Shown here: positions 33,365 to 63,513 of the stretch, one piece after another | How the letters are laid out: each line of letters begins with the position of its first letter | Numbering within the stretch: the stretch's first letter is position 1 | NCBI RefSeq assembly: GCF_045679555.1 | Contig: NC_092087.1 | Coordinates: 81,462,901-81,526,900, forward strand | Direction: 5' to 3' | Length of the DNA stretch: 64,000 bases | Origin: Salvelinus alpinus | Taxonomy: Eukaryota; Chordata; Actinopteri; Salmoniformes; Salmonidae | Notes under the pieces: model-generated | What the model saw: only the letters and a program-made list of their open reading frames with translations | What the model was told of the DNA's origin: nothing | The model's database searches: none | Made by a program: the position numbers and the translations under genes

Positions 33365-34821
33365 CTAGAGGTCGACCGATTATGATTTTTCAACGCCGAT
33401 ACCGATTATTGGAGGACCCAAAAAGCCGATACCGATTAATCTGACGATTTATAAAATGTATTTGTAATAATGACAATTACAACAATACTGAATGAACACT
33501 TATTTGAACTTAATATAATACATCAATAAAATCTATTTCAAATAAATAATGAAACATGTTCAATTTGGTTTAAATAATGCAAAAACAATGTTTTGGAGAA
33601 GAATGTAGAAGTGCAATATGAGCCATGTAAGAAAGCTAAAGTTTAAGTTCCTTGCTCAGAACATGAGAACATATGAAAGCTGGTGGTTCCTTTTAACATG
33701 AGTCTTCAATATTCCCAGGTAAGAAGTTTTAGGTTGTAGTTATTATAGGACTCTCTCTATACCATTTGTATTTCATATACCTTTGACTATTGGATGTTCT
33801 TATAGGCACTTTAGTATTGCCAGTGGAACAGTATAGCTTCCATCCCTCTCTTCGCCGCTACCTGGGCTCGAACCAGGAACACCGACAACAGCCACCCTCG
33901 AAGCATCGTTACCAATCGCTCTCCAAAAGCCGCAGCCCTTGCAGAGTAAGGGGAACAACTACTCCAAGTCTCAGAGCGAGTGACGTTTCAAACGCTATTA
34001 GCGCGGACCCCGCTAACTAGCTAGCCATTTCACATCGGTTACACCAGCCTAATCTCGGGAGTTGATAGGCTTGAATTCATAAACAGCAGAGCTGCTGGCA
34101 AAACGCACAAAAGTGCTGTTTGAATGAATGCTTACGAGCCTGCTGGTTCCCACCATCGCTCAGTCAGACTGCTCTACCAAATCATAGACTTAATTATAAC
34201 ATAATAACACACAGAAATACAAGCCGTAGGTCATTAATATGGTTGAATCCAGAAACGATCATCTCAAAAACAAAACAATTATTCTTTCAGTGAAATACGG
34301 AACCGTTACATATTTTATCTAACGGGTGGCATCCATCAGTCTAAATATTCCTGTTACATTGCACAACCTTCAATGTTGTCATAATTACGTAAAATTCTGG
34401 CAAATTAGTTCGCAATGAGCCAGGCGACCAAAACTGTTGCATATACCCTGACTCTGCGTGCAATGAACGCAAGAGAAGTGACACAATTTCACCTGGTTAA
34501 TATTGCCTGCTAACCTGGATTTCTTTTAGCTAAATATGCAGGTTTAAAAATATATACTTCTGTGTATTGATTTTAAGAAAGGCATTGATGTTTAGGTACA
34601 CGTTGGAGCAACGACAGTCCTTTTTCGCGAATGCGCACTGCATCGATTATATGCAACACAGGACATGCTAGATAAACTAGTAATATCATCAACCATATGT
34701 AGTTATAACTAGTGATTATGATTGATTGATTGAGTTTTTATAAGATAAGTTTAATGCTAGCTAGCACCTTACCTTGGCTTCTTACTGCATTTGCGTAACA
34801 GGCCGGCTCCTCGTGAGGCAG

Positions 34822-36014
34822 GTGGTTAGAGCGTTGGACTAGTTAACCTCTTGACGCGAGGGGTCAGATTTTTTATTTATTTTTTATAAATAATGTTCCC
34901 AAGGTAAACGGACTATTTCTCAGGCCCAGTCGTATAATATGCATATAATTTACAGATTGGGATAGAAAACACTCCAAAGTTTCCAAAACTGTCAAAATAT
35001 TGTCTGTGTTTATAACAAAACTGATTCTGCAGGCGAAAACCTGAGAAAATCGAACCCGGAAGTGATTTTTTTATTTTATTTTTTTATCTGTGTTTCCTGG
35101 CCCGTCTTTCTTCCATTTAAAGGGGTATCAACCAGATTCCTTTTCCAATGGCTTCCTCAGGCTGTGACCAGGCTTTAGACATAGTTTCAGGCTTTTATTT
35201 TGAAAAATGTGCGAGATTTTTCAAAACTAGTCAGGTGTCCTCTGATTAGTTCCTGCGCGCGAGAGGGTAGCTCTCCATTTTCTTTTTCTCTCTTATTGAA
35301 TAGGTTACGGTCCGGTTGAAATATTATCGATTATGTTTGTTAAAAACAACCTGAGGATTGATTATTAAAAAAAATTGACATGTTTCTACGACCATTACGG
35401 ATACTTTTTGGAATTTTCATCGAACGGAGCAAGGCTTTGGTTTTCTGAACATAACTTGCAACCCAAATGGCGTTAAAAAAAAAGAAAAAAAGTACTATTT
35501 ATCGAACAAAAATAACATTTATTGTGTAACTGGGAGTCTCGTGAGTGCAAATATCCGAAGATGATCAAAGGTAAGCGATTAATTTGATTGCTTTTCTGAC
35601 TTTCGTGACCATGCTAATTTGGGGCTAGCTGTTCGACCATTGATTGATACACTCACAAAAGCTTGGATTTCTTTCGCTGTAAAGCATATTTTCTAAATCT
35701 GACACGATAGGTGGATTAACAACAAGCTAAGCTGTGTTTTGGCATATTTCACTTGTGATTGCATGATTATAAATATTTTTAGTAATATTTTGCACCCTGC
35801 AATTCAGCGGTTGTTTAGGAAAAGGATCCCGTAAAAGGGATCCGTAGCGCAGAGAAGTTAACTGTAAGGTTGCAGGTTGTAAGATTGAATCCCTGAGCTG
35901 ACAAGGTAAAAATCTGTCTTTCTGCCCCTGAACAAGGTAGTTAACCCACCGTTCCTAGGCCGTCATTGAAAATAACAATGTGTTCTTAACTGACTTGCCT
36001 AGTTAAATAAAGGT
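34822..36014 (+). mobile_element. HpaI-like tRNA-derived SINE split by TTAA element copy 3
   Basis: The 5' portion GTGGTTAGAGCGTTGGACTA (34822 on) carries an A-box-like tRNA region. The 3' portion at 35858-36014 has GAGCTGACAAGGTAAAAATC, CTGCCCCTGAACAAGG and CTTGCCTAGTTAAATAAAGG. The pieces join at TTAAC once the insert is removed. Confidence 0.8.
34847..35857 (+). mobile_element. TTAA-flanked non-autonomous element, copy 3
   Basis: TTAA at 34843-34846 and 35858-35861. The ends are CCTCTTGACGCGAGGGGTCA and the complement of CTTCTCTGCGCTACGGATCC. It shares interior blocks with copy 1, such as CCGGTTGAAATATTAT, AAAACAACCTGAGGATTGAT and TTATTGTGTAACTGGGAGTC, although the ends have diverged. Confidence 0.82.
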
Positions 36015-36140
36015 GTAAAAAAAACTAAAAAAACTTTTGATAAAAAAAATAAAACACATTTAAAATCGGCAAAATCTGCGTCCAAAATTACCGATTTTCG
36101 ATTGTTATGAAAACTTTAAAATCGGCCCTAATTAAAAATC

Positions 36141-36732
36141 GGCAGATACTTTTACTACAGGAATTGTGAGGATAATGCACGTTACTGTTTCACCAAATCA
36201 TTGTTTTAATAGCCTGTAAAAATAGGACGTTTGGACTGAGGTGAGCGTGTAATGTGACCAACTAAAAATGTAACTTGCGACACGTTAAAGGGTGGCAAAA
36301 TGCAAATAAATGTTCAGTCAGGAGCCCTGGAAGACAACTGTCGTTATCAGATAGTACGCGATGCAAGAGCTGTTCAAATTTTCTTTAGCGATAGTTTCTT
36401 ACGCCTCATCACGCCATCCATGTCCACTTTCATTCATCCCACCCTCTCTCTTTTCAAGTTGAGAACTGACAGATGTGAGTGGGAGACGCAAAAATTGCAA
36501 TATCTGCTAATGGGGACAGATTGGTATATAATGAGAAGAAACCGTGAAGCTTAAATATAAACTGCTTAAAAGGTGTGAAGTGATTGCAGACTGGCATTTA
36601 AAACTGCCAATTACGCTGTAATATGGGCCAGGCTCAGCCGGCGCAAAAAGACGCTGTCATAAGTGCTTTCCTGGGGGTGGGTGTTAAAAGGAACAACCAG
36701 CTTTCATATGTTCTCATGTTCTGTGTTCCTAA
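36141..36732. other. Mixed intronic sequence with an inverted hAT piece
   Basis: Mostly unrecognised. GGAACAACCAGCTTTCATAT at about 36690 is the reverse complement of part of the hAT element at 33365-36140, directly upstream of a second hAT family copy. Confidence 0.5.
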
Positions 36733-47022: not shown

Positions 47023-48693
47023 AAAAAAACAAGTGAGCAAGATGTTGATTTTCTCAAAACAGGAGTTGCAGTTGGAACTGCTCAAGGCGATTCATCATTT
47101 CATAAAACATACAATCATCATCATCATTGCTATCATCATCATACTAACTCAACAAAAAATAGTTTTTTTAGGCACTACAAAAAATTTACTCGAAAAGGAA
47201 AACGTTGAAAAATATAGGTTGCATTGCACCCAAATAATAACTTGATGAAAGTGGCACATTTTAAGTACATTAATACAGTAGAGCCTCCCTCATGCAGAGG
47301 CTGTGATTGGATAAAATATTAAACGTCCCACCTCTCAAACCAGCATGTCACACAAAGCTAAAGACAGCCGTGATTAGCCATTGGTTAAATCTGGTGTCGG
47401 TCAAAATAATTTGTTTCTGTGGCAACTAACACAATGGATAGAACTTCATACAAACTTGAGTTTTCACTTCAATACACATTAATACATGTTATAACATGTT
47501 AATAAACTGTTTGTAATGAATTCTGTTCCTTTTGGCGAATGTCATACTTTTAACACATATTATCCCTAAAGATTTTAAGTGCTTTCCCATTTTGATATAA
47601 CCAAAGTCCCTTTAATTTCCTACACTATGATTCCCTTAAACAATTTTTAGATTTGTGCTTTTTCAGTATACTTGTTAGAGTATAATAGTTACTTGAGAGT
47701 GCTATAACGTATTTGTTCAGTTTTCTTACTGTCAAGACTGCTTGGTATAGGCTACCATCCCAATTTGCCATTTCCATTTAGGAGAGGTCTAGGAGAAGTT
47801 GTGTGAGACCCAGTCAGGAGACCTATGGTTCCGACAGTTATGTTCCACAGACCACTTAAAGAAGCTGTACGGAAGTTTCTTTAAAAAAAATGTGCTTCCT
47901 GAAAAGTTGGACATAAAAAAGCGTCAGTGTGAAGATAAATCCCTATGTTGGTTTTCCCTTTAATATTGGGTCTATGTAGCACATCACAAACACTCTAAGC
48001 CATCGTCTCAAAGCAGAAACACCAATAACACTGCTTTTTGTCATTCCCTTATTCTACCCATGCTTCTTACCCATAATCCACCACTATCTGGCACGTCATT
48101 TATTTCCCTTTACGGTCAGGCGAATAGGCTACAACTGATCAAGTGAAAAACTGAATATGGCACAAACGATAACGATACAATAACAAAACAAATTGCATTG
48201 AAAAAACAACTTGTAGTAAAAGAACCACAGCATCATCGGTAGACTAGGTTTGAAATATAGAAAATAAGTCATGCTAAAGATTGTTCCAACCTTTTTTGTG
48301 TTTTTGTTCCATATTCATTTCTTGTTCGTTAACGGTTCTTGTCCTGAAGGCACTTCTTTACATATCAACCAAAGCATAAGAAAAATAAAACCTCAACACC
48401 AACAAGCAAAAACCCTTTCTCTACTCCTCCTCCTCCCTCCCCCTCCATTATATTGTGCCACAATAACTGTGCTCAACACAGCCCTCCCCCTTCCTATAGA
48501 AAAGTGATGAGCCATCATAGCTTGACTACAAGTCAATGTCCAAAGGTCACTCTGTCTGCAGTCACATTTCATCATGTGAAAACATCTGTTTTGGTTCAGA
48601 AATGTGATTAATGGATAAGTTAGGGGGGAAAAACTCCTTCCATCCCTACAAACATTTATCTGTAGCTACTTCTGTCTTCAGCTCAGAGAAAGG
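47021..48693. other. Probable ADCY9 3' UTR region
   Basis: Sequence downstream of the ADCY9 stop in transcript sense, with no recognised repeat or gene. Assignment to the 3' UTR is by position only. Confidence 0.4.
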
Positions 48694-48779
48694 AGTGCTG
48701 ATCGAGGATCAGTTTCAACTTTAAAATCATAATGAATAGGATTATATGGATAAGGGGGAGCTGATCCTAGATCAGCACT
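48694..48779. mobile_element. Hairpin MITE immediately after the ADCY9 stop codon
   Basis: GTGCTGATCGAGGATCAG at the left pairs with the reverse complement of the right end (CTGATCCTAGATCAGCACTT). The inner end of the hairpin is only 7 bp from the stop codon, so it forms the start of the 3' UTR. Related half-copies lie at about 386-405 and 46625-46644. Confidence 0.7.
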
Positions 48780-48786
48780 TGATGGA

Positions 48787-50203
48787 TCAAAGGCGTGACA
48801 TGAAATCCTCCTTATTGAGCTTTGTCAGCTCATTTGCTTCCTCCTCCTCCTCTTCCTCAGGCTGTGCCAAGGTACAGGGTACTAGCTCCGGGTCTAGGTC
48901 CAGGGTAAGGGGGTGAGGGTCCGTGCCCGTAGCAGGGGGGTGGCCAGCCCCAGTTTGGGGGATTCCTGGTGGGGTTGGAGCATCCCTGTACCCCTCTGCC
49001 CGATCTGCCCTTACCCCGCAGGGCTTGGCCGGGCCTGGCTCTGGCCCTAGTCCTGAAGGAGCTCCACGGGGTCCTATAGAAGAGGCTTGGGGGGTGAATG
49101 TGGAGGAAGAGGAGGAGGTGGGAGGAGTGTAAGAAGAGGATAAAGGAGGAGGAGCTGGCGCATTGGCACCTGCATCAGACTTGGTCGTTTTAACGGCGGC
49201 CCCTTCCCCCACGGGTCCAACGGCTGCCTGTGATTGGACAGGTTTCACCGGGGGCAAAACAGCAACTAATTGATGTGGCTGTAGCCAAGGTTCAGCCAAT
49301 AGCTGCCCACCTCTTTCAGTGCTCCTGGGATACAGGAAGGTCCTCATTTGACCTTTGCCCTTGACGTTGACGGTACCGCGGTAGTCGAACTCTAATCCCA
49401 TTCTGCTGAGCGCCGAGTGGCTCTCCTCACTCACCTGTACCCGACACTCCACCCCTGTAGAGTCCATGCGACTCGCAATATTCACTGTGTCTCCCCAGAT
49501 GTCGTAGAGCAACTTGGTAGTGCCGATCACCCCCGCCGTCAGGGGACCATGATTGAACCCGATACGGAGCTTAAACCCAAAGCCTAGCATGTTTTTATTG
49601 AAGTCGTCCAAAACACCCATCATCTCGAGGGCGAAGTCGAACAGCGCCCTCAGGTGGTTAGAGTTGGGGTGGGAGTCGTCAATGCACTGCTGAGGGTTCA
49701 GCCCGGACGCCGCCATGTACGTGGCGCCGATCGTCTTGATCTTCTCCACGTTGGCGAAGTCCGGTTTCCGTAGCAACTCATCGAAGTCGCCGATGAGCTC
49801 ATTGAGCACTCGATAACACTCCTTCCCGCCTTCGTAACTTTCCTCGTAGAATTCAGAAAAATTCACAATACTCGCAAAGATGACCCCGGCGTTGTCGTGA
49901 TTTTTGGAGTACGACTGGGTCACCTTGAGCTGCTCGGCAACGTGGATTGGGATGATGTTGCCTAGCAACCAGTCTGCCTGGTCCCGCATGTTCTGGATCT
50001 TGACGCGGTGCTTGTCGGCCTCTATGTTGCCGTGGTAATGGAGACGGTAGCTGACCTCGAACTCGTGGTTCAAAAACCAGACCAATAGAAGGAGGAGGAA
50101 GTAGGTGAGTACTGCTTCTGGAACCAGTAGGTCTAGGGGTCTCACGGGGTCCATGGCGTCTGGACGTGGTTCTGGAGTGGACCATGTCTCATTGGTGAGA
50201 TTA
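48787..50203 (-). CDS. adcy9: ADCY9 terminal exon: last TM segment, C2 cyclase domain, tail
   Basis: The acceptor is CTTTTCCAG before 50203 and TGA is at 48787-48789. The exon completes a Gly codon, then has NLTNETW (a possible N-glycosylation site in the last extracellular loop), a membrane helix (LTYFLLLLLVWFLN), and REVSYR-like HEFEVSYRLHYHGNIEADKH leading into C2. C2 features: NAGVIFASIVNFSEFYEESY, KIKTIGATYMAASGL, and DIWGDTVNIASRMDSTGV with the conserved Asn and Arg of the catalytic site. C2 carries no metal-binding Asp pair, as expected, since those lie in C1. A roughly 175-residue Pro/Ser/Gly-rich tail ends in an E-run and EANELTKLN, the C2b segment known from mammalian AC9, followed by KEDFMSRL. 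ADCY9 is a Gs-stimulated, forskolin-poor cyclase of the plasma membrane and endosomes. Confidence 0.95.
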
Positions 50204-50429
50204 CTGGAAAAGAGAAAGAGAAAATGAGAAGAGGGCAGGAGGTAGATGAGGGCAGACAGAGAGAGAAAGGAGTGGTGTGGCGGCTAGACAGAAAGAGAAA
50301 AAAAGAAAGAGAGTTAAGAAAGGAGTGTGTAGAGAGATAAGAAGCCTGCAGCATCTCTCTCACAGTTGAGCTTTACCCGTGGCTCGTATAAATAGGACCA
50401 GCTAGCCAGTCTGACTCACAGGATCTGTC

Positions 50430-50501
50430 CCAAATGGCACCCTATTCCCTATGTGCCCTGGTCAAAAGTAGTGCACTAAGTAGGGAATAGGGTGCCTTTG
50501 A
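50430..50501. mobile_element. Hairpin MITE in ADCY9 intron
   Basis: CAAATGGCACCCTATTCCCT pairs with AGGGAATAGGGTGCCTTTG, with GTAGTGCACT in the loop region. Fragments of the same family lie at 7091-7125 and about 53306-53363. Confidence 0.75.
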
Positions 50502-50814
50502 GATGCAGACATAGCCACTGACATTTAGCTGCTATGATTACACCAGCCATACTTCACAGTTTGAGAAAAGAGAGGAGAGGAGAGGGAGAAAAGAGAGTGA
50601 GAGAAGGAGAGAGAGTGAAGAGAAGAGAGAGGGAGAAAGAGAGAGAGAGATGGAAAGAGAAAGATAGAAAGACGTCCCCTCTTCTCTCCTTTCACCCCCG
50701 TCACCCTCCCAAATGTCACTCATCCATCAACATTCTGCATTTCCATGGCAACACTCACCCCATCGCTGGAGAACTGTCATTACTGGAGCTGCAAGACAGA
50801 GTGACTCCCGTCAG

Positions 50815-50978
<164 letters not shown>

Positions 50979-51299
50979 CTGACTGATTCATATCAACCTC
51001 TTAGAATGACTCCCGTGAGTTAAACACAAGTGTGATAACACATTCCAACACACTCGCACACACACTCCAACACACTTACTCACACACACAACTTGGCTCA
51101 CAACCAGATGAATATGAACATTTCCTAAGAGCCACTGGGAGAGAGAGGTATATTGTGTATTATTGTGCATATTGTGTATGTCATAAAATGCTGACTAACG
51201 GCTGACTGATGGCAAATAAACTGCAAGCTATACAATTTTTAAAAAATTATAGCTTAAAGTTTTAACATTATGACATAAGTTATAACATCTTCATAATGT

Positions 51300-51680
51300 T
51301 GTAAAGTTTCAAACGTTTCACCCCGCTACCCTCTAGAAGGCGGAGACAGTACAGGTGCATCAAAGCTGGGACCGAGAGACTGAAAAAAAGCTTTTTATCT
51401 CCAGGCCATCAGACTGTTAAACAGTCACCACTAGCTGGCCTCCGCCCAGTACCCTGCCCTGAACTTTAGTCACTGATACTAGCCGGATACCACCCGGTAC
51501 TCTACCCTCCACCTTAGAGACTGCTGCCCTATGTACACAGTCATGGAACACTGTTAACATCCTGTTTTACCCACTTCATATGTATGTACTGTATTCTAGT
51601 TGATCATCCTATATAACTATTGCTGTACACACCTTTTCTATTCATATATTGTCCATAATGCCTATACACACAATCATATA
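51300..51680 (+). mobile_element. LINE-A family 3' end, piece 1 (split by Tc1)
   Basis: GAAGGCGGAGACAGTACAGG, TGCATCAAAGCTGGGACCGA and CATCAGACTGTTAAACAGTC match the C-terminal coding end and 3' UTR of LINE-A at 18600-18770 in the opposite orientation. The element resumes at 52384. Confidence 0.75.
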
Positions 51681-52533
<853 letters not shown>

Positions 52534-52563
52534 TCGTAAATATGTATAGGCTGCAGTACTCAC

Positions 52564-52712
52564 CCTGTCCTGTTGAGGGGGCTGTGGAGCAGCACTAGTA
52601 GAGCCACACCAACAGCCGTGGCCAGGGCAGATCTCATCCAGAAACTCAGCTGGCAGAAGTTACAGTACTGGATGATGGCTATGGTCACTGCACAGCACAG
52701 GAACATGGTTAC
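52564..52712 (-). CDS. adcy9: ADCY9 exon (membrane helices of second cassette)
   Basis: The acceptor is CCCTCTAG before 52712 and the donor is ACAGG then GTGAGT at 52563. 149 bp, starting in phase 0: VTMFLCCAVTIAIIQYCNFC, QLSFWMRSALATAVGVALLV, LLHSPLNRT. HYCNFCQLS-x-WMRS-x-LAT is the matching human AC9 text from memory. Two hydrophobic helices are visible. It ends with two bases of a Gly codon completed by the terminal exon. Confidence 0.92.
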
Positions 52713-53212
52713 CTAGAGGGAGGACACACAACATTTGTTTGTGTAAACTGAAATTCCAATTTTCATCAATGCTTCTCTATGAGAAGAAATCGGGAATTGG
52801 AATTTCAGGTTATTTCCCAAATTGACTGAATTGAAATGGAACTTGACCCTGGTACACAAGAGTACTCACGCAATATATTACATATGGTAACATAAACATA
52901 CTTCCCCACCAATACCCTCAACACACTCACACATGCCTTATGCACACCCGTGGCATGTGTGAACACACACCCACACACGCATCAGTAGTTGAATCCCCTG
53001 TACAGTAGTTAGTACAGACTTATGATGACAACTTAACACGTCTCTCTTCCATCCCTCCATCTCTCGCTCCATGCTTCCATCCCTCCCTTCTATCCCTCTC
53101 ACACACATCTTCTCTTTCTCTGCCATATTATTCATCGCTCTCGTCCAGTCCATCCCTCTCTTTCATCCCTCCATCCACATCCCTCTCTCTCTCTGCAAGG
53201 TATCACCTCTGT

Positions 53213-53216
<4 letters not shown>

Positions 53217-53243
<27 letters not shown>

Positions 53244-53244
53244 G
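53217..53244. repeat. (GT)n followed by a G-run
   Basis: A short GT tract passes into a run of about 18 G residues, with possible G-quadruplex character on the plus strand. Confidence 0.7.
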
Positions 53245-53305
53245 ATCCTTGCAAAACAAGATATCAAAACACACCAGCTTGACTTGTGAGCAGTCAAGAC
53301 TTGGG

Positions 53306-53363
53306 TGCATCCCACATGACCCCCTATTCCCTATATAGTGCACTACCTTTTGACCAGAGCCCT
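53306..53363. mobile_element. Fragment of a hairpin MITE
   Basis: CCCTATTCCCTATATAGTGC and ACTACCTTTTGACCAGAGCC belong to the MITE family of 50430-50501. Confidence 0.6.
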
Positions 53364-53785
53364 ATGGCAGCAGCTCCGGACTCAGAGTAAGGCTAGAGAA
53401 AACAATGTGCAGTGTGTAGTTAGCCTCTGCCCAAACTAGGACCTCTATCTCTTCCACATAAAGGATTTGATAAGAGGATAATGTCAATCATCTGTGTGCC
53501 AAGCTCCACAAGTATAGACCTCTCCATTGTCCATTGACTGTTTCTCTCTGAAACACTGGCACGTTCTAGTGGGCTCTACAACTGTGGACCAAGTATAACT
53601 CAATGCACTTGACACTTAGTCCCATACACTTGAGAACACCTATTATTGTAAATAGGTGTTGTTAGCAGTAATGCATTTGCCATCTGTCATCTAGACCAGC
53701 GTTCAAACCCCTTTTGACCATCCCTGACTAGAACCCCATGTCTACCAGTCTGCCCTCCTCCTTTACCCTCTCTATCTCTCCTTAC

Positions 53786-53945
53786 CTGGATGGGCAGGTG
53801 GAGGCTGCAGGCGAGGTGTGAGAACACGGACACGGCAGGAAGTGAGACCAGCAAGGCCCCGATCACATGACGGGGGATCCAGCCTGACACCACCCTCAGC
53901 AAGGTCTGGGTACAGCTCAACACGTTGTCCAGGTAGAACGTCATA
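53786..53945 (-). CDS. adcy9: ADCY9 exon (membrane region)
   Basis: The acceptor is CCCCCTGCAG before 53945 and the donor is CAG then GTAAGG at 53785. 160 bp: one base completes an Arg codon, then MTFYLDNVLSCTQTLLRVVS, GWIPRHVIGALLVSLPAVSV and FSHLACSLHLPIQ. The GW-x-PRH-x-IGA-x-LVSLPA block matches mammalian AC9. Phase joins its neighbours (SIR then MTFYL). Confidence 0.93.
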
Positions 53946-54042
53946 CTGCAGGGGGCCAAGGAGGAGGAGGTGAGGAAAGAAGGGACAAGTAAATAGCAAA
54001 AAAGGACAACATTGTGATACACTGACTCACATCCCTATCAGT

Positions 54043-54123
54043 TCTCTCTCTCTCCCTCCCTCCCTCCCTCCCTCTCTCCCTCCCTCCCTCCCTCCCTCCC
54101 TCCCTCCCTCCCTCCCTCCCTTT
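54043..54123. repeat. (CCCT)n tract
   Basis: About 80 bp of CCCT/CT repeat in the intron between the 53786 and 54231 exons. On the transcript strand it is purine-rich GGGA. Confidence 0.95.
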
Positions 54124-54230
54124 CTAATTTCTCATTCCTCCATATAGCAACAGGGAGACCAACTCCAGCAGACACTTTTCACTTTACCCATCCTCTCTCC
54201 CTCCCACTATCTCCCCCCTCCATCCCTCAC

Positions 54231-54439
54231 CGTATGGACAGCACCAGGGAGACCAGCTCTAACAGACCAGCAGCGGTAGCCAATCCCAGGACGGTTGCCG
54301 GAGGCGACTCCATGGTGACCATGGGAACCAGGAAGCAGGCCAAGGTGAGGGCGAGGAACACAGAGCAGGATAGGAGAACATCCAGGAAGGAGCTGAAGGT
54401 AGGGCTGGCGAAGGTCTGCACCGGGGCCTGGGTCTCCAC
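54231..54439 (-). CDS. adcy9: ADCY9 exon starting inside the splice-site minisatellite
   Basis: The acceptor is CTCTCCTCCAG before 54439 and the donor is ATACG then GTGAGG at 54230. 209 bp, phase 0 start: VETQAPVQTFASPTFSSFLD, VLLSCSVFLALTLACFLVPM, VTMESPPATV, LGLATAAGLLELVSLVLSI. TFASPTFSS-x-LDV matches mammalian AC9 and opens the second membrane cassette; two to three helices are visible. The first nine codons (VETQAPVQT) and the 36 bases before them are the unit of the tandem array that extends to 55798, so this is the junction from which the array grew. Confidence 0.93.
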
Positions 54440-55798
54440 CTGGAGGAGAGAGAGTAGTCAGACACATAGAGAGAAGGTCTGCACCGGGGCCTGGGTCTCC
54501 ACCTGGAGGGGAGAGAGTAGTCAGAGACATAGAGAGAAGGTCTGCACTGGGGCCTGGGTCTCCACCTGGAGGAGAAAGAGTAGTCAGAGACATAGAGAGA
54601 AGGTCTGCACCGGGGCCTGGGTCTCCACCTGGAGGAGAGAGAGTAGTCAGAGACATAGAGAGAAGGTCTGTACCGGGGCCTGGGTCTCCACCTGGAGGGG
54701 AGAGAGTAGTCAGAGACATAGAGAAAAGGTCTGCACCGGGGCCTGGGTCTCCACCTGGAGGGGAGAGAGTAGTCAGAGACATAGAGAGAAGGTCTGCACC
54801 GGGACCTGGGTCTCCACCTGGAGGGGAGAGAGTAGTCAGAGACATAGAGAGAAGGTCTGCACTGGGACCTGGGTCTCCACCTGGAGGGGAGAGAGTAGTC
54901 AGAGACATAGAGAGAAGGTCTGCACCGGGACCTGGGTCTCCACCTGGAGGGGAGAGTAGTCAGAGACATAGAGAGAAGGTCTGCACCGGGGCCTGGGTCT
55001 CCACCTGGAGGGGAGAGAGTAGTCAGAGACATAGAGAGAAGGTCTGCACCGGGGCCTGGGTCTCCACCTGGAGGAGAGAGAGTAGTCAGACACATAGAGA
55101 GAAGGTCTGCACCGGGGCCTGGGTCTCCACCTGGAGGGGAGAGAGTAGTCAGAGACATAGAGAGAAGGTCTGCACTGGGGCCTGGGTCTCCACCTGGAGG
55201 AGAGAGAGTAGTCAGAGACATAGAGAGAAGGTCTGCACTGGGACCTGGGTCTCCACCTGGAGGAGAGAGAGTAGTCAGAGACATAGAGAGAAGGTCTGCA
55301 CCGGGGCCTGGGTCTCCACCTGGAGGAGAGAGAGTAGTCAGAGACATAGAGAGAAGGTCTGCACTGGGGCCTGGGTCTCCACCTGGAGGGGAGAGAGTAG
55401 TCAGAGACATAGAGAAAAGGTCTGCACCGGGACCTGGGTCTCCACCTGGAGGAGAGAGAGTAGTCAGAGACATAGAGAGAAGGTCTGCACCGGGGCCTGG
55501 GTCTCCACCTGGAGGGGAGAGAGTAGTCAGAGACATAGAGAGAAGGTCTGCACCGGGGCCTGGGTCTCCACCTGGAGGGGAGAGAGTAGTCAGAGACATA
55601 GAGAGAAGGTCTGTACCGGGGCCTGGGTCTCCACCTGGAGGGGAGAGAGTAGTCAGAGACATAGAGAGAAGGTCTGTACCGGGGCCTGGGTCTCCACCTG
55701 GAGGGGAGAGAGTAGTCAGAGACATAGAGAGAAGGTCTGCACCGGGACCTGGGTCTCCACCTGGAGGGGACAGCGTAGTCAGAGACATAGAGAGAAGG
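54411..55798 (-). repeat. 63-bp minisatellite of the ADCY9 intron-exon junction, about 22 copies
   Basis: Each unit, read on the transcript strand, has about 36 bases of intron end (TTCTCTCTATGTCTCTGACT, ACTCTCTCCCCTCCAG) and 27 bases of exon start encoding VETQAPVQT. The last copy in transcript order is the real exon boundary at 54439/54440; about 21 more lie upstream in the intron. Every complete unit keeps CTGAC, a pyrimidine tract and CCTCCAG before GTGGAG. Copies differ by a few substitutions (CACCGGGG, CACTGGGG, TACCGGGG, GGACCTGG), and one near 54950 lacks 4 bases. The unit is divisible by three, which explains long repetitive frames on both strands. Confidence 0.97.
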
Positions 55799-55867
55799 AG
55801 AGGAGAAAGGAAGGGGAGAGGTGGTTAGACAGTTGGGATGAGAGGGGAACAACACAGGGACAGAGAG

Positions 55868-56820
55868 AGGAGATAAAGTCTGGGTTGGCGCTCCTCCTTG
55901 GGGTGTGCCGTGGCGGAGATCTTTGTGGGCTATACTCGGCCTTGTCTCAGGATGGTAAGTTGGTGGTTGAAGATATCCCTCTAGTGGTGTGGGGGCTGTG
56001 CTTTGGCAAAGTGGGTGGGGTTATATCCTTCCTGTTTGGCCCTGTCCGGGGTTATTATCGGATGGGGCCACAGTTCAGCCTCCTGATCCCTCCTGTCTCA
56101 GCCTCCAGTATTTATGCTGCAGTAGTTTATGTGTCGGGGGGCTAGGGTCAGTCTGTTATATCTGGAGTATTTCTCCTGTCTTATCCGGTGTCCTGTGTGG
56201 ATTTAAGTATGCTCTCTCTAATTCTCTCTTTCTCTCTTTATTTCTTTCTCTCTCTGAGGACCTGAGCCCTAGGACCATGCCTCAGGACTACCTGGCATGA
56301 TGACTCCTTGCTGTCCCCAGTCCACCTGGCCGTGCTGCTGCTCCAGTTTCAACTGTTCTGCCTGCGCCTATGGAACCCTGACCTGTTCACCGGACATGCT
56401 ACCTGTCCCAGACCTGCTGTTTTCAACTCTCTAGAGACAGCAGAGAGCGGTAGAGATACTCTTAATGATCGGCTATGAAAAGCCAACTGACATTTACTTC
56501 TGAGGTGCTGACCTGTTGCACCCTCGACAACTACTGTGATTATTATTATTTGACCATGCTGGTCATTTATGAACATTTGAACATCTTGGCCATGTTCTGT
56601 TATAATCTCCACCCGGCACAGCCAGAAGAGGACTGGCCACCTCTCGTAGCCTGGTTCCTCTCTAGGTTTCTTCCTAGGTTTTGGCCTTTCTAGGGAGTTT
56701 TTCCTAGCCACCGTGCTTCTACACCTGCATTGCTTGCTGCTTGGGGTTTTAGGCTGGGTTTCTGTACAGCACTTTGCTATATCAGCTGATGGGCTATATA
56801 AATACATTTGATTTGATAAA
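55868..56820 (+). mobile_element. Dispersed salmonid repeat, unclassified
   Basis: Sequence such as GGTTCCTCTCTAGGTTTCTT, GGGAGTTTTTCCTAGCCACC and GGGCTATATAAATACATTTG at its right end belongs to a high-copy salmonid repeat recognised from memory. The right end (TTTGATTTGAT) resembles a retroposon tail. No protein was recognised in it. It separates the minisatellite from the GT microsatellite within one ADCY9 intron. Confidence 0.6.
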
Positions 56821-56940
56821 GTTCAGATTACTACTACTATAATGTGGTCAAACTGTTAGAACTGAAATATCTTATATACACCAGCAGGGGGCTTTGTATG
56901 AACACGTGGTCAATACGGCTTTGACTGACACGGATTGAGG

Positions 56941-57072
<132 letters not shown>

Positions 57073-57175
57073 CTCCTCCTGGTAGCTGATGCGGTAGGCT
57101 GTCTCCAGAGGTCTCTCCAGGAAGTTGAGGCTCAGCTTGTTGATGGGAGGCTTGAAGAAGTAGTCCTTCATCAGA
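57073..57175 (-). CDS. adcy9: ADCY9 exon (C1b to second membrane cassette linker)
   Basis: The acceptor is TCTTTCAAG before 57175 and the donor is GAGGAG then GTACAC at 57072. 103 bp: one base completes Ser, then LMKDYFFKPPINKLSLNFLE and RPLETAYRISYQEE. KEDSLMKDYFFKPPIN-x-LSLNFL and SY-x-x-SYQEE are highly conserved AC9 text. It ends in phase 0 and joins VETQ in the 54231-54439 exon. Confidence 0.95.
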
Positions 57176-57424
57176 CTTGAAAGACAGGAGAATAGATTGA
57201 GGAAAAGACCGGTAGAGGGTTTCACGGTGGAATCCTAACTTGAACTCGACATCTGCATGCATGACTTGAGTCATCCATTGACATCTACGCATTATTTATG
57301 TGATCATCGAGGTTAAGTGCATCTCAAGCTGGGATTCCTCCCTTAGTGACTGACTTCAAATATATATGCTGTCAACACTAATCACCATAGCACTGTTGGT
57401 ACTCCTAAACCACCCAAGCCATAG

Positions 57425-58590
57425 ACTGTTCTCTCTGCTTCTGCACAGCAAGCGGTGCCGGTGTATCAAGTCTGACACCAACAGGCTCCTGAACAGCTTC
57501 TATCCCCAAGCCATAAGACTGCTAAATACCTAACAAATGTCTACACAGACCATCTGTCTATCTAAGTTGACCCTTTAGATATTTTTATTCTTGCACTGTC
57601 TCAATGCACACTCACTCACACTGACACGCTCAACACACACATCTATACTGACTCTATACACACACTCACTCACACTGACACGCTCAACACACACATCTAT
57701 ACTGTCTCAATGCACACTCACTCACACTGACACGCTCAACACACACATCTATACTGACTCAATGCACACTCACTCACACTGACACGCTCAACACACACAT
57801 CTATACTGACTCTATACACACACTCACTCACACTGACACGCTCAACACACACATCTATACTGACTCAATGCACACTCACTCACACTGACACGCTCAACAC
57901 ACACATCTATACTGACTCAATGCACACTCACTCACACTGACACGCTCAACACACACATCTATACTGACTCTATACACACACTCACTCACACTGACACACT
58001 CAACACACACATCTATACTGTCTTAATGCACACTCACTCACACTGACACGCTCAACACACACATCTATACTGTCTTAATGCACACTCACTCACACTGACA
58101 CGCTCAACACACACATCTATACTGTCTTAATGCACACTCACTCACACTGACACGCTCAACACACACATCTATACTGTCTCAATGCACACTCACTCACACT
58201 GACACACTCAACACACACATGACATGCACACACATCTAAACTGACTCTATAAACACACACACTCACATACAATCTTCATATACACTGCTGCTACTCTGTT
58301 AATCATATATCCTGATGCCTAGTCACCTTACCACTATACATATCTACCTCTATAGATCCAGTATCTCTGTACATTATAATATGGTACTGGAACTGACCCT
58401 GCACAGCTTCTTACTTTCTCCTGTCCTCTTTATTTCTTATTTTTATTTCTCCTGTGTGTTTGTTCAACCGTATGTTATTTTTGTTAGTACTACATTGATA
58501 TTGATTAGTGCATTATTGGATTCAGAGTTAGGAAGAAAAATGCCTTTCACTTTAAACCTAAGGAAGGCTAATCCCTGATCTGCCAAGACA
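57425..58590 (+). mobile_element. LINE 3' end with expanded tandem repeat
   Basis: The plus strand encodes a LINE C-terminal end (KRCRCIKSDTNRLLNSFYPQ, AIRLLNT, stop), followed by a 3' UTR with CTGATGCCTAGTCACCTTAC and CATATCTACCTCTATAGATC. A tandem array of 52/54-bp units lies between (57600-58230). It is 5'-truncated. Confidence 0.75.
57600..58230. repeat. 52/54-bp minisatellite inside a LINE 3' UTR, about 12 copies
   Basis: Units contain CACTCACTCACACTGACACG and CTCAACACACACATCTATAC. Two interspersed variants occur, one with CTCAATGCA and one with CTCTATACACA, differing by two bases in length. Confidence 0.95.
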
Positions 58591-58691: not shown

Positions 58692-61600
58692 CAACAGTGC
58701 AGTAGTATCTAACAGCAGTGCAGTAGTATCTAACAGCAGTACAGTAGTATCTAACAACAGTGCAGTAGTATCTAACAGCAGTACAGTAGTATCTAACAAC
58801 AGTGCAGTAGTATCTAACAGCAGTGCAGTAGTATCTAACAACAGTGCAGTAGTATCTAACAGCAGTGCAGTAGTATCTAACAACAGTGCAGTAGTATCTA
58901 ACAGCAGTACAGTAGTATCTAACAACAGTGCAGTAGTATCTAACAGCAGTACAGTAGTATCTAACAACAGTGCAGTAGTATCTAACAGCAGTGCAGTAGT
59001 ATCTAACAGCAGTGCAGTAGTATCTAACAGCAGTACAGTAGTAGCTAACAACAGTGCAGTAGTATCTAACAGCAGTGCAGTAGTAGATAACAGCAGTACA
59101 GTAGTATCTAACAGCAGTGCAGTAGTATCTAACAGCAGTGCAGTAGTATCTAACAGCAGTGCAGTAGTATCTAACAACAGTGCAGTAGTATCTAACAACA
59201 GTGCAGTAGTATCTAACAGCAGTGCAGTAGTATCTAACAGCAGTACAGTAGTAGCTAACAACAGTGCAGTAGTATCTAACAGCAGTGCAGTAGTAGCTAA
59301 CAGCAGTACAGTAGTATCTAACAGCAGTGCAGTAGTATCTAACAGCAGTGCAGTAGTATCTAACAGCAGTACAGTAGTAGCTAACAGCAGTACAGTAGTA
59401 TCTAACAGCAGTGCAGTAGTATCTAACAGCAGTTCAGTAGTATCTAACAGCAGTACAGTAGTAGCTAACAACAGTGCAGTAGTATCTAACAGCAGTGCAG
59501 TAGTATCTAACAGCAGTGCAGTAGTATCTAACAGCAGTGCAGTAGTATCTAACAGCAGTACAGTAGTAGCTAACAGCAGTACAGTAGTATCTAACAGCAG
59601 TGCAGTAGTATCTAACAGCAGTTCAGTAGTATCTAACAGCAGTACAGTAGTAGCTAACAACAGTGCAGTAGTATCTAACAGCAGTGCAGTAGTATCTAAC
59701 AACAGTGCAGTAGTATCTAACAGCAGTGCAGTAGTATCTAACAGCAGTACAGTAGTAGCTAACAGCAGTACAGTAGTATCTAACAGCAGTGCAGTAGTAT
59801 CTAACAGCAGTGCAGTAGTATCTAACAGCAGTACAGTAGTAGCTAACAACAGTGCAGTAGTATCTAACAGCAGTGCAGTAGTATCTAACAACAGTGCAGT
59901 AGTATCTAACAGCAGTGCAGTAGTATCTAAGAACAGTGCAGTAGTATCTAACAACAGTGCAGTAGTATCTAACAACAGTGCAGTAGTATCTAACAACAAT
60001 GCAGTAGTAGCAAACAACAGTGCAGCAGTAACTAACAACAATGCAGTGGTATCTAACAACAGTGCAGTAGTATCTAACAGCAGTGCAGTAGTATCTAACA
60101 GCAGTGCAGTAGTATCTAAGAACAGTGCAGTAGTATCTAACAACAGTGCAGTAGTATCTAAGAACAGTGCAGTAGTATCTAACAACAGTGCAGTAGTATC
60201 TAACAACAATGCAGTAGTAGCTAACAACAGTGCAGCAGTAACTAACAACAATGCAGTAGTATCTAACAACAGTGCAGTAGTATCTAACAGCAGTGCAGTA
60301 GTATCTAACAGCAGTGCAGTAGTATCTAAGAGCAGTTCAGTAGTATCTAACAGCAGTGCAGTAGTATCTAACAGCAGTGCAGTAGTATCTAACAGCAGTG
60401 CAGTAGTATATAACAACAGTGCAGTAGTATCTAACAACAGTGCAGTAGTATCTAACAGCAGTGCAGTAGTATCTAAGAACAGTGCAGTAGTATCTAACAG
60501 CAGTGCAGTAGTATCTAAGAACAGTGCAGTAGTATCTAACAGCAGTGCAGTCGTATCTAACAGCAGTGCAGTAGTATCTAACAACAATGCAGTAGTATCT
60601 AACAACAGTGCAGTAGTATCTAAGAACAGTGCAGTAGTATCTAACAGCAGTGCAGTAGTATCTAACAGCAGTGCAGTAGTATCTAAGAACAGTGCAGTAG
60701 TATCTAACAGCAGTGCAGTAGTATCTAACAGCAGTGCAGTAGTATCTAACAGCAGTGCAGTAGTATATAACAGCAATGCAGTGATATCTAACAGCAGTGC
60801 AGTAGTATATAATAACAATGCAGTGGTATCTAACACCAGTGCAGTAGTATCTAACAGCAGTGCAGTAGTATCTAACAACAATGCAGTAGTATCTAACAAC
60901 AGTGCAGTAGTATATAACAGCAGTGCAGTAGTATCTAACAGCAGTGCAGTAGTATCTAAGAACAGTGCAGTAGTATCTAACAGCAGTGCAGTAGTATCTA
61001 ACAGCAGTGCAGTAGTATCTAACAGCAGTGCAGTAGTATCTAACAACAGTGCAGTAGTATCTAAGAACAGTGCAGTAGTATCTAACAGCAGTGCAGTAGT
61101 ATCTAACAGCAGTGCAGTAGTATCTAAGAACAGTGCAGTAGTATCTAACAGCAGTGCAGTAGTATCTAACAGCAGTGCAGTAGTATATAACAGCAATGCA
61201 GTGATATCTAACAGCAGTGCAGTAGTATATAATAACAATGCAGTGGTATCTAACACCAGTGCAGTAGTATCTAACAGCAGTGCAGTAGTATCTAACAACA
61301 ATGCAGTAGTATCTAACAACAGTGCAGTAGTATATAACAGCAGTGCAGTAGTATCTAACAGCAGTGCAGTAGTATCTAACAGCAGTGCAGTAGTATCTAA
61401 CAGCAGTGCAGTAGTATCTAAGAAGAGTGCAGTAGTAGCTAACAACAGTGCAGTAGTATCTAACAACAGTGCAGTAGTATCTAACAACAATGCAGTAGTA
61501 TCTAACAGCAATACAGTGATATCTAACAGCAGTGCAGTAGTATATAATAACAATGCAGTGGTATCTAACACCAGTGCAGTAGTATCTAACAGCAGTGCAG

Positions 61601-63513
61601 TAGTATCTAACAACAATGCAGTAGTATCTAACAACAGTGCAGTAGTATATAACAGCAGTGCAGTAGTATCTAACAGCAGTGCAGTAGTATCTAACAACAA
61701 TGCAGTAGTAGCTAACAACAGTGCAGTAGTAGCTAACAACAATGTAGTGGTATCTAACAGCAGTGCAGTAGTATCTAACAGCAGTGCAGTAGTATCTAAC
61801 AGCAGTGCAGTAGTATCTAACAACAATGCAGTAGTATCTAACAACAGTGCAGTAGTATCTAACAACAGTGCAGTAGTATCTAACAACAATGCAGTAGTAT
61901 CTAACAGCAGTGCAGTAGTATCTAACAACAGTGCAGTAGTATCTAACAGCAGTGCAGTAATATCTAACAACAGTGCAGTAGTAGCTAACAACAATGTAGT
62001 GGTATCTAACAGCAGTGCAGTAGTATCTAACAGCAGTGCAGTAGTATCTAACAACAATGCAGTAGTATCTAACAACAGTGCAGTAGTATCTAACAACAGT
62101 GCAGTAGTATCTAACAGCAATGCAGTAGTATCTAACAGCAGTACAGTAGTATCTAAGAACAGTGCAGTAGTATCTAACAGCAGTGCAGTAATATCTAACA
62201 ACAGTGCAGTAGTAGCTAACAACAATGTAGTGGTATCTAACAGCAGTGCAGTAGTATCTAACAGCAGTGCAGTAGTATCTAACAACAATGCAGTAGTATC
62301 TAACAACAGTGCAGTAGTATCTAACACCAATGCAGTAGTATCTAACAACAGTGCAGTAGTATCTAACAACACAGTAGTATCTAACAGCAGTGCAGTAGTA
62401 TCTAACAACAGTGCAGTAGTATCTAACAGCAGTGCAGTAGTATCTAAGAAGAGTGCAGTAGTAGCTAACAACAGTGCAGTAGTATCTAACAGCAGTGCAG
62501 TAGTATCTAACAACAGTGCAGTAGTATCTAACAGCAGTGCAGTAGTATCTAACAACAGTGCAGTAGTATCTAACAACAGTGCAGTAGTATCTAACAGCAG
62601 TGCAGTAGTATCTAACAACAGTGCAGTAGTATCTAACAGCAGTGCAGTAGTATCTAACAACAGTGCAGTAGTATCTAACAACAGTGCAGTAGTATCTAAC
62701 AACAATGCAGTAGTATCTAACAACAGTGCAGTAGTATCTAACAACAGTGCAGTTGTATCTAACAGCAGTGCAGTAGTATCTAACAACAGTGCAGTAGTAG
62801 CTAGCAACAATGTAGTGGTATCTAACAGCAGTGCAGTAGTATCTAACAGCAGTGCAGTAGTATCTAACAACAATGCAGTAGTATCTAACAACAGTGCAGT
62901 AGTATCTAACACCAATGCAGTAGTATCTAACAACAGTGCAGTAGTATCTAACAACACAGTAGTATCTAACAGCAGTGCAGTAGTATCTAACAACAGTGCA
63001 GTAGTATCTAACAGCAGTGCAGTAGTATCTAAGAAGAGTGCAGTAGTAGCTAACAACAGTGCAGTAGTATCTAACAGCAGTGCAGTAGTATCTAACAACA
63101 GTGCAGTAGTATCTAACAGCAGTGCAGTAGTATCTAACAACAGTGCAGTAGTATCTAACAACAGTGCAGTAGTATCTAACAGCAGTGCAGTAGTATCTAA
63201 GAACAGTGCAGTAGTAACTAACAGTGCAGTAGTAGCTAACAACAATGCAGTAGTATCTAAGAACAGTGCAGTAGTATCTAACAGCAGTGCAGTAGTATCT
63301 AACAACAGTGCAGTAGTATCTAACAGCAGTGCAGTAGTATCTAACAGCAGTGCAGTAGTATCTAAGAACAGTGCAGTAGTAGCTAACAGTGCAGTAGTAT
63401 ATAAGAACAATTCAGTAGTATCTAAGAACAGTGCAGTAGTAGCTAACAACAGTGCAGTAGTAGCTAACAACAGTGCAGTAGTATCTAACAACAGTGCAGT
63501 AGTAAATAACAAC
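58692..63513. repeat. 4.8-kb tandem array of 21-bp units, about 230 copies
   Basis: The unit is AGTATCTAACAACAGTGCAGT-like (21 bp; 20-base core GTATCTAACAACAGTGCAGT), with AAC/AGC, AAT/AGT and GTAT/GTAG variants. The left third is dominated by AGCAGTRCAG variants; the right part by AACAACAGTGC and AACAATGCAG. Occasional 18-bp units occur, for example near 62365 and 62950. Because no stop occurs in one frame of each strand, it yields 1622-codon (minus) and 1156-codon (plus) frames of heptapeptide repeats, which are not genes. It lies in the ADCY9 intron between exons 63721-64000 and 57073-57175. Confidence 0.98.

What the first reader, a model, noticed from the sequence alone, without database searches (positions are those of the whole stretch)
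54411..55798. Tandem amplification of a 3' splice site: about 21 decoy acceptors ahead of an ADCY9 exon
The 63-bp unit spans the intron-exon boundary: about 36 bases of intron end (CTGAC branch-like motif, pyrimidine tract, CCTCCAG) plus the first 27 coding bases. The true acceptor is the last of about 22 nearly identical copies. Branch-point scanning would normally favour the first AG, which here is about 1.3 kb upstream. In the exon frame each decoy reads V-E-T-Q-A-P-V-Q-T-F-S-L-C-L then TGA, and that TGA overlaps the CTGAC motif, so use of any decoy should truncate the protein or trigger decay. Copy number could therefore tune ADCY9 output. Minisatellites overlapping exons are known; one that multiplies a complete acceptor module upstream of the real site is, as far as I know, unusual.
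Basis: partly seen in the sequence, partly recalled or inferred. Interest (0 to 1): 0.9.

Follow-up and report, generated by a model that had tools for sequence, protein, structure and literature searches.

The report
Twenty-two-fold repeated splice acceptor in ADCY9
In a fish adenylate cyclase gene, the DNA that marks where one exon begins has been copied 22 times in a row, so splicing must pick the last of 22 near-identical start signals; such boundary repeats are known from lancelets and people, but this 22-copy acceptor version is an unusually clean natural test of how that choice is made.

Summary
On the minus strand, window 54410-55798 holds 22 tandem copies of a 63-bp unit (36 intronic bases with CTGAC, pyrimidine tract and CAG, plus 27 exonic bases). 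The last copy is the true acceptor of an ADCY9 exon, 54231-54439. All 21 decoys keep CTGAC and CAG|GTGGAG, and each reads into an in-frame TGA after 14 codons. A near-identical inverted stretch on the same contig also carries 22 units with three small differences, which argues against an assembly error. A diverged ADCY9 paralogue on another contig has one acceptor there and no array. Branch-point scanning need not favour the first copy, because each copy has its own branch-like site. Exon definition (209-nt exon) should favour the last copies, with some leak into decay-prone isoforms; no RNA was seen. Copy-number tuning is untested. The class is not new: amphioxus "mirages" repeat intron-exon boundaries, and human ABCA7 and IFI6 have donor-side versions. 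Notable are the scale, the vertebrate host, and a weak upstream donor that runs into a (CA)n tract.

The parts
57073..57175 (-). ADCY9 exon upstream of the array (exon A), ends CAGGAGGAG
   Evidence: reads LMKDYFFKPP...YQEE; gapless ADCY9 match
56941..57072 (-). exon A donor GT running straight into a (CA)n tract: GAG|GTACACAC...; weak donor
   Evidence: matrix score 2.89 against 5.88 in the inverted copy and 8.5 in the paralogue (recalled frequencies)
54410..55798 (-). 63-bp minisatellite spanning the intron-exon boundary, 22 copies
54502..55760 (-). 21 decoy acceptors (first exon base of copy 21 to that of copy 1), each CAG|GTGGAG with its own CTGAC and CT tract
54457..54461 (-). CTGAC branch-like motif of copy 22; its A is 19 nt before the first exon base
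   Evidence: sequence; branch role inferred
54231..54439 (-). ADCY9 exon B, 209 nt, true acceptor at 54439, donor ACG|GTGAGG from 54230; its first 27 nt lie in the array
53786..53945 (-). next ADCY9 exon (exon C), after a 285-nt intron
48787..50220 (-). stretch used here for the last ADCY9 exon (C2 catalytic domain), open frame; its exact 5' exon edge was not set

Best explanation
A minisatellite was born at the exon B acceptor by slippage between two CCTTC pentamers 63 bp apart, one in the intron and one in the exon, and grew to 22 copies. Each copy is a complete acceptor module. The gene can still work because exon B is recognised across the exon: the donor at 54230 pairs best with the nearest acceptor (209-nt exon), less with copies 21 and 20 (272 and 335 nt), and hardly with distant ones (up to 1530 nt). 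Leak into the nearest decoys should give messages with an early TGA that are degraded. Shown: anatomy, frame, stops, intact exons, two matching array copies. Inferred: slippage origin, exon-definition choice, leak and decay.
For: Array and copies. The intron flank CTCTCCTTCTCT and the exon GACCTTCGCC share CCTTC at the unit ends. Gapless A|B junction against ADCY9; exons A-D read without a stop; against the C1 paralogue dN/dS is 0.138 over 486 codons (exons A-D, 204 codons, 0.252; part of the last exon, 282 codons, 0.081). Exon lengths per acceptor run from 209 to 1530 nt and the upstream intron is 2633 nt; the downstream intron is 285 nt (coordinates). PMC9225289 (abstract; section 9): with large flanking introns, sites closest across the exon are favoured. 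PMC3087553 (passages): amphioxus boundary repeats are reported, from RT-PCR, not to interfere with regular splicing.
Against: No RNA was seen. PMC9225289 also reports an overall preference for the upstream 3' site, and says that for 3' sites exon definition significantly reduces that preference, which falls short of a plain reversal. Matrix scores do not favour the true site: 13.8 for copy 22, 13.66-13.8 for 18 of the 21 decoys, 14.42 for copy 20, lower only for copies 1 and 14. Folding of the last 150 nt shows no special structure (z +1.73; 194 of 200 shuffles fold at least as well), and the local accessibility of copy 22 lies within the range of the decoys. The dN/dS covers the time since the paralogues split, not just the time since the array arose.
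Confidence: 0.62

Rival explanations
1. Rheostat: decoys are used often, and the number of copies sets the share of ADCY9 message lost to decay, so array length tunes adenylate cyclase 9 output.
For: 19 of 21 decoys score as high as the true site to within 0.2 bits or above it, copies 1 and 14 being weaker, and 21 of 21 give an early in-frame TGA. In ABCA7, VNTR length goes with exon 19 skipping and with lower expression (PMC5954066 passages).
Against: Both places in this assembly have 22 units, so no length variation was seen. In ABCA7 the isoform that retains one repeat unit did not change with VNTR length. Only the nearest decoys make exons of usual size (size norm recalled).
Confidence: 0.18
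2. Ratchet: every copy is CAG|GTGGAG, so splicing to a decoy recreates a donor GAG|GTGGAG next to exon A, which can splice again to a later copy. The array would act as stepping stones that lead to the last acceptor and help a weak donor.
For: 22 of 22 copies have AG|GT; the recreated donor scores 4.01 against 2.89 for the exon A donor in the window. One human study looked at recursive sites of the form YAG|GT (PMC5126111 passages).
Against: GTGGAG is a poor donor (4.01 of a maximum of 12.64). In the inverted copy the exon A donor is GTAACA and scores 5.88, above the recreated one. The paralogue begins this exon with the same GTGGAG without an array, so the array did not shape that motif. The intron is short for recursive splicing (recalled).
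Confidence: 0.1
3. Silencer array: the join between copies makes CTTCTCTCT just downstream of each decoy, where the true exon has CTTCGCC. A CU-binding repressor such as PTB on both sides silences decoys and spares the last copy.
For: CTTCTCTCT occurs 20 times and CTTTTCTCT twice in the window array, neither in exon B (CTTCTCTCT, TTCTCT and CTCTCT all counted 0 there). That PTB binds such CU motifs is recalled; a PTB and hnRNP L paper was seen in a search listing only (PMC3796306).
Against: Pyrimidine tracts are part of every acceptor; no binding was measured. It may add to exon definition rather than replace it.
Confidence: 0.12
4. Assembly artefact: the array is a single acceptor in reality.
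For: Repeat arrays are prone to assembly error (general knowledge).
Against: Two places in the assembly carry 22 units with the same order of variants and three small differences, with no N in the fetched inverted stretch; 13 distinct sequences occur among the 21 units of 63 bp.
Confidence: 0.03

Closest known systems
Amphioxus 'mirage' minisatellites (Adh3; globin genes BflGb6 and BflGb9), PMC3087553 (passages)
   Same: Tandem repeats spanning an intron-exon boundary; BflGb6 repeats the 3' end of an intron plus the start of exon 2, and many units carry AG/GT
   Different: BflGb6 has 6 and 3 units of 150-160 bp in two haplotypes; here 22 units of 63 bp, the same number in both places seen, in a fish, with AG|GT in 22 of 22
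ABCA7 intron 18 VNTR, PMC5954066 (passages)
   Same: A repeat that includes an authentic splice site; retention of one unit causes a premature stop
   Different: Donor side, 25-bp unit, about 12 to 427 units among people; here the acceptor side
Human IFI6 (6-16, G1P3) minisatellite, Turri et al. 1995 (title in reference lists; paper not held; passage in PMC4526556)
   Same: Minisatellite units serve as alternative splice sites
   Different: Donor side; two downstream units are used, giving three mRNAs
Vertebrate recursive splice sites (PMC5126111 passages)
   Same: YAG|GT juxtaposition
   Different: Recalled as single points in long introns; here 22 in a 2.6-kb intron, with a poor donor half
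Intron gain by tandem duplication of AGGT segments (Rogers model; PMC2812944 and PMC3087553 passages)
   Same: Tandem duplication across AG|GT
   Different: No new intron was seen here; the paralogue has an intron at the same place

Membership tests
Mirage minisatellite (boundary-spanning tandem repeat) | Tandem repeats span an authentic exon-intron boundary | tested here: met
Mirage minisatellite (boundary-spanning tandem repeat) | Units carry splice signals (AG/GT) | tested here: met
   22 of 22
Mirage minisatellite (boundary-spanning tandem repeat) | Length instability between haplotypes | tested here: inconclusive
   22 and 22 units in two near-identical places, one of them 2 bp longer in copy 2; whether they are alleles is not settled
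Mirage minisatellite (boundary-spanning tandem repeat) | Regular splicing is kept | not testable with these tools
   no RNA data; exons A-D read without a stop
ABCA7/IFI6-type repeat | Repeat multiplies an authentic donor site | tested here: not met
   the authentic site in the repeat is the acceptor of exon B; the GT half of the units scores 5.05
Recursive splice site | YAG|GT with a usable regenerated donor | tested here: inconclusive
   motif in 22 of 22; regenerated donor 4.01 of 12.64, above the window donor, below the inverted-copy donor
Recursive splice site | Lies in a long intron (criterion recalled) | tested here: not met
   intron 2633 nt
Intron gain by tandem duplication | A new intron absent from relatives | tested here: not met
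   the paralogue has an intron at the same position

The most novel reading that the evidence does not exclude
The array is a splicing ratchet that rescues an intron whose donor has been eroded by a growing CA microsatellite: 22 strong acceptors raise the chance of splicing at all, and each wrong join recreates a donor that scores above the window's own, so errors are spliced again until the last acceptor.
Probability: 0.08. Interest if true: 0.85.

Novelty: new member of a known kind. Interest (0 to 1): 0.5.

Why it matters
Splice-site choice among identical sites is mostly studied in artificial constructs (general knowledge). Here one native vertebrate gene offers 22 near-identical acceptors in a row with one correct answer, a readable penalty for each wrong one (early stop), and sequence variants that tell several copies apart. 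It extends the amphioxus mirage class to a vertebrate at larger scale, and two repeats, a (CA)n at the donor and a minisatellite at the acceptor, shape both ends of one intron.

Tried and rejected
RNA structure hiding the decoys: no support; the last 150 nt fold less well than most shuffles (194 of 200 at least as well), and copy 22 lies within the range of the decoys in local accessibility. A stronger true acceptor: not seen; 18 of 21 decoys score 13.66-13.8 like copy 22 (13.8), copy 20 scores 14.42, copies 1 and 14 score lower. The array as coding sequence in the exon frame: rejected; TGA after 14 codons from each of 21 decoys. Long open frames in other frames are expected of a period that is a multiple of three. 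Special conservation of the splice part: not seen; 5 of 36 intronic and 3 of 27 exonic positions vary among the 21 units of 63 bp (copy 14, 61 bp, was dropped from that count). The repeat elsewhere in the genome: one search listed 9 matches, all in the window locus, the inverted copy or the paralogue exon; the tool says that such counts are lower bounds. Full extent of the inverted stretch: not settled. The splice matrix uses recalled human-like frequencies, not trained on this genome. Other fish: the genome tool says that this genome has no relatives there, so cross-species comparison was not done; the large protein database was not searched, because full-length ADCY9 would fall outside its length limits for a query from this window.

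Full report
Observation. The minus strand of window 54410-55798 holds a 63-bp tandem repeat with 22.1 copies at 96% matches. Walking along TCCAG|GTGGAG gives 22 acceptors from 55760 to 54439; 20 of 21 spacings are 63 bp and one is 61. Each of the 22 copies has one CTGAC and one TCCAG.

The gene. Exon B (54231-54439) matches ADCY9 (best E 3.9e-11). Exons A to D joined align to ADCY9 chains of the PDB over chain residues 737-935 with no gap at the A|B junction, so homology places the true acceptor at copy 22. The stretch used for the last exon carries the C2 domain and its frame is open. Exon A, exon B and that last-exon stretch are identical in the inverted copy described below.

Decoys. Joined to exon A, 21 of 21 decoys reach TGA after 14 codons, 227-1485 nt before the end of exon B; copy 22 stays open. 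In the inverted copy the same holds for 21 of 21. By recalled splice-site frequencies, the 22 unit acceptors are the best 22 of 217 AG sites scored between the exon A donor and the end of exon B; they score 10.4-14.42 and the next best 7.9. Copy 1 (10.4) and copy 14 (11.31) are weaker; copy 20 (14.42) is slightly stronger than the true copy (13.8).

Is it real? The genome held for this window (2.37 Gb, 928 contigs) has a second, inverted stretch on the same contig about 5 Mb away. It too has 22 units in the same order of variants, with a 2-bp insertion in copy 2, one G to A in copy 5 and one T to C at the start of copy 20. I compared the window plus 40 kb beyond it (104 kb) with 130 kb around the inverted copy. 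Pieces longer than 400 bp and above 96% identity (my filter; rows inside the two arrays also left out of the print) lie between positions 537 and 92,665 of the 104 kb, with gaps between them. One further piece aligned at 95.8% (33701-36324). Over 48124-58220 the match is 99.3%. It may be a second haplotype kept by the assembly or a recent inverted duplication; I could not settle which. Either way the array appears twice. The (CA)n tract at the donor differs (about 125 and 108 nt by pattern length), and a coarse motif count in segments of unequal size hints that the 21-bp array differs too (189 and 239), so the 63-bp array looks the steadier.

Origin. A diverged ADCY9 paralogue on contig C1 has a single acceptor, CCCGTCCCCAG|GTGGAGACCCAGG, and no such array in its intron. 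dS to the window copy is about 1.0; I do not assign the pair to a particular genome duplication. The array is therefore most likely derived. Its ends carry CCTTC both in the intron and in the exon, which fits slippage between short direct repeats (inference). Among the 21 units of 63 bp, 13 are distinct, with a mean pairwise difference of 2.16 of 63 (the 61-bp copy 14 left out).

Mechanism. The claim that scanning would take the first AG does not hold, since each copy has its own branch-like CTGAC, and sites this far apart are typically chosen when the branch point and tract are first recognised (PMC9225289 section 9). In that study upstream 3' sites are preferred overall, and this preference is significantly reduced in the exon-definition class; its class LS mimics exon definition. 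I take LS to mean a long upstream and a short downstream intron; I did not see its length threshold. Exon B has a 2633-nt intron upstream and a 285-nt one downstream (coordinates). Using copy 22 gives a 209-nt exon; copies 21 and 20 give 272 and 335 nt; copy 1 gives 1530 nt. I therefore expect copy 22 to dominate with leak to the nearest decoys. This is inference; no RNA was available.

The other end of the intron. The exon A donor is GAG|GTACACAC, running straight into the CA tract; it scores 2.89, while the inverted copy has GAG|GTAACAC (5.88) and the paralogue GAG|GTGTGT (8.5). Splicing to a decoy would recreate GAG|GTGGAG (4.01). That leaves room for resplicing in the window copy but not clearly in the inverted copy, so I hold it as the bold reading only. 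CTTCTCTCT occurs at the joins between copies (20 in the window array and 19 in the other, plus two CTTTTCTCT in each) but not in exon B, which may help to mark decoys as silent; that a repressor such as PTB binds there is recalled and untested.

Known systems. Amphioxus mirages are the closest: BflGb6 repeats the end of an intron and the start of exon 2, with 6 and 3 units in two haplotypes, and RT-PCR suggested regular splicing (PMC3087553, passages). ABCA7 (PMC5954066, passages) and IFI6 (PMC4526556, passage; the 1995 paper itself was not held) are donor-side cases. PMC2812944 (passages) reports human tandem repeats at exon-intron boundaries that can form novel introns. My ten literature searches were made, in an open-licence library; several lists were cut (for example 30 of 120 and 20 of 364), and I looked inside only a few papers. 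They showed me no vertebrate acceptor-side array of this size, which is a weak negative.

Organism. No tool named it.

Noticed in passing
56941-57072: A (CA)n tract begins right after the GT of the exon A donor, so microsatellite change rewrites the donor: GTACAC here, GTAACA in the inverted copy.
   Followed up: partly
58695-63511: 21-bp minisatellite of about 230 copies in the upstream ADCY9 intron; long open frames on both strands (1622 and 1615 aa) as a 21-bp period allows; a coarse motif count differs in the inverted copy.
   Followed up: partly
57595-58220: A minisatellite with 52-, 106- and 158-bp periods in the same intron.
   Followed up: no
window 537 to about 29 kb beyond its end; contig C2 near 76.5 Mb: An inverted near-identical counterpart of much of the window lies about 5 Mb away on the same contig: retained haplotype or recent inverted duplication.
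   Followed up: partly
54044-54121: A (CTCC)n tract in the 285-nt intron just after exon B, so exon B lies between two tandem repeats.
   Followed up: no
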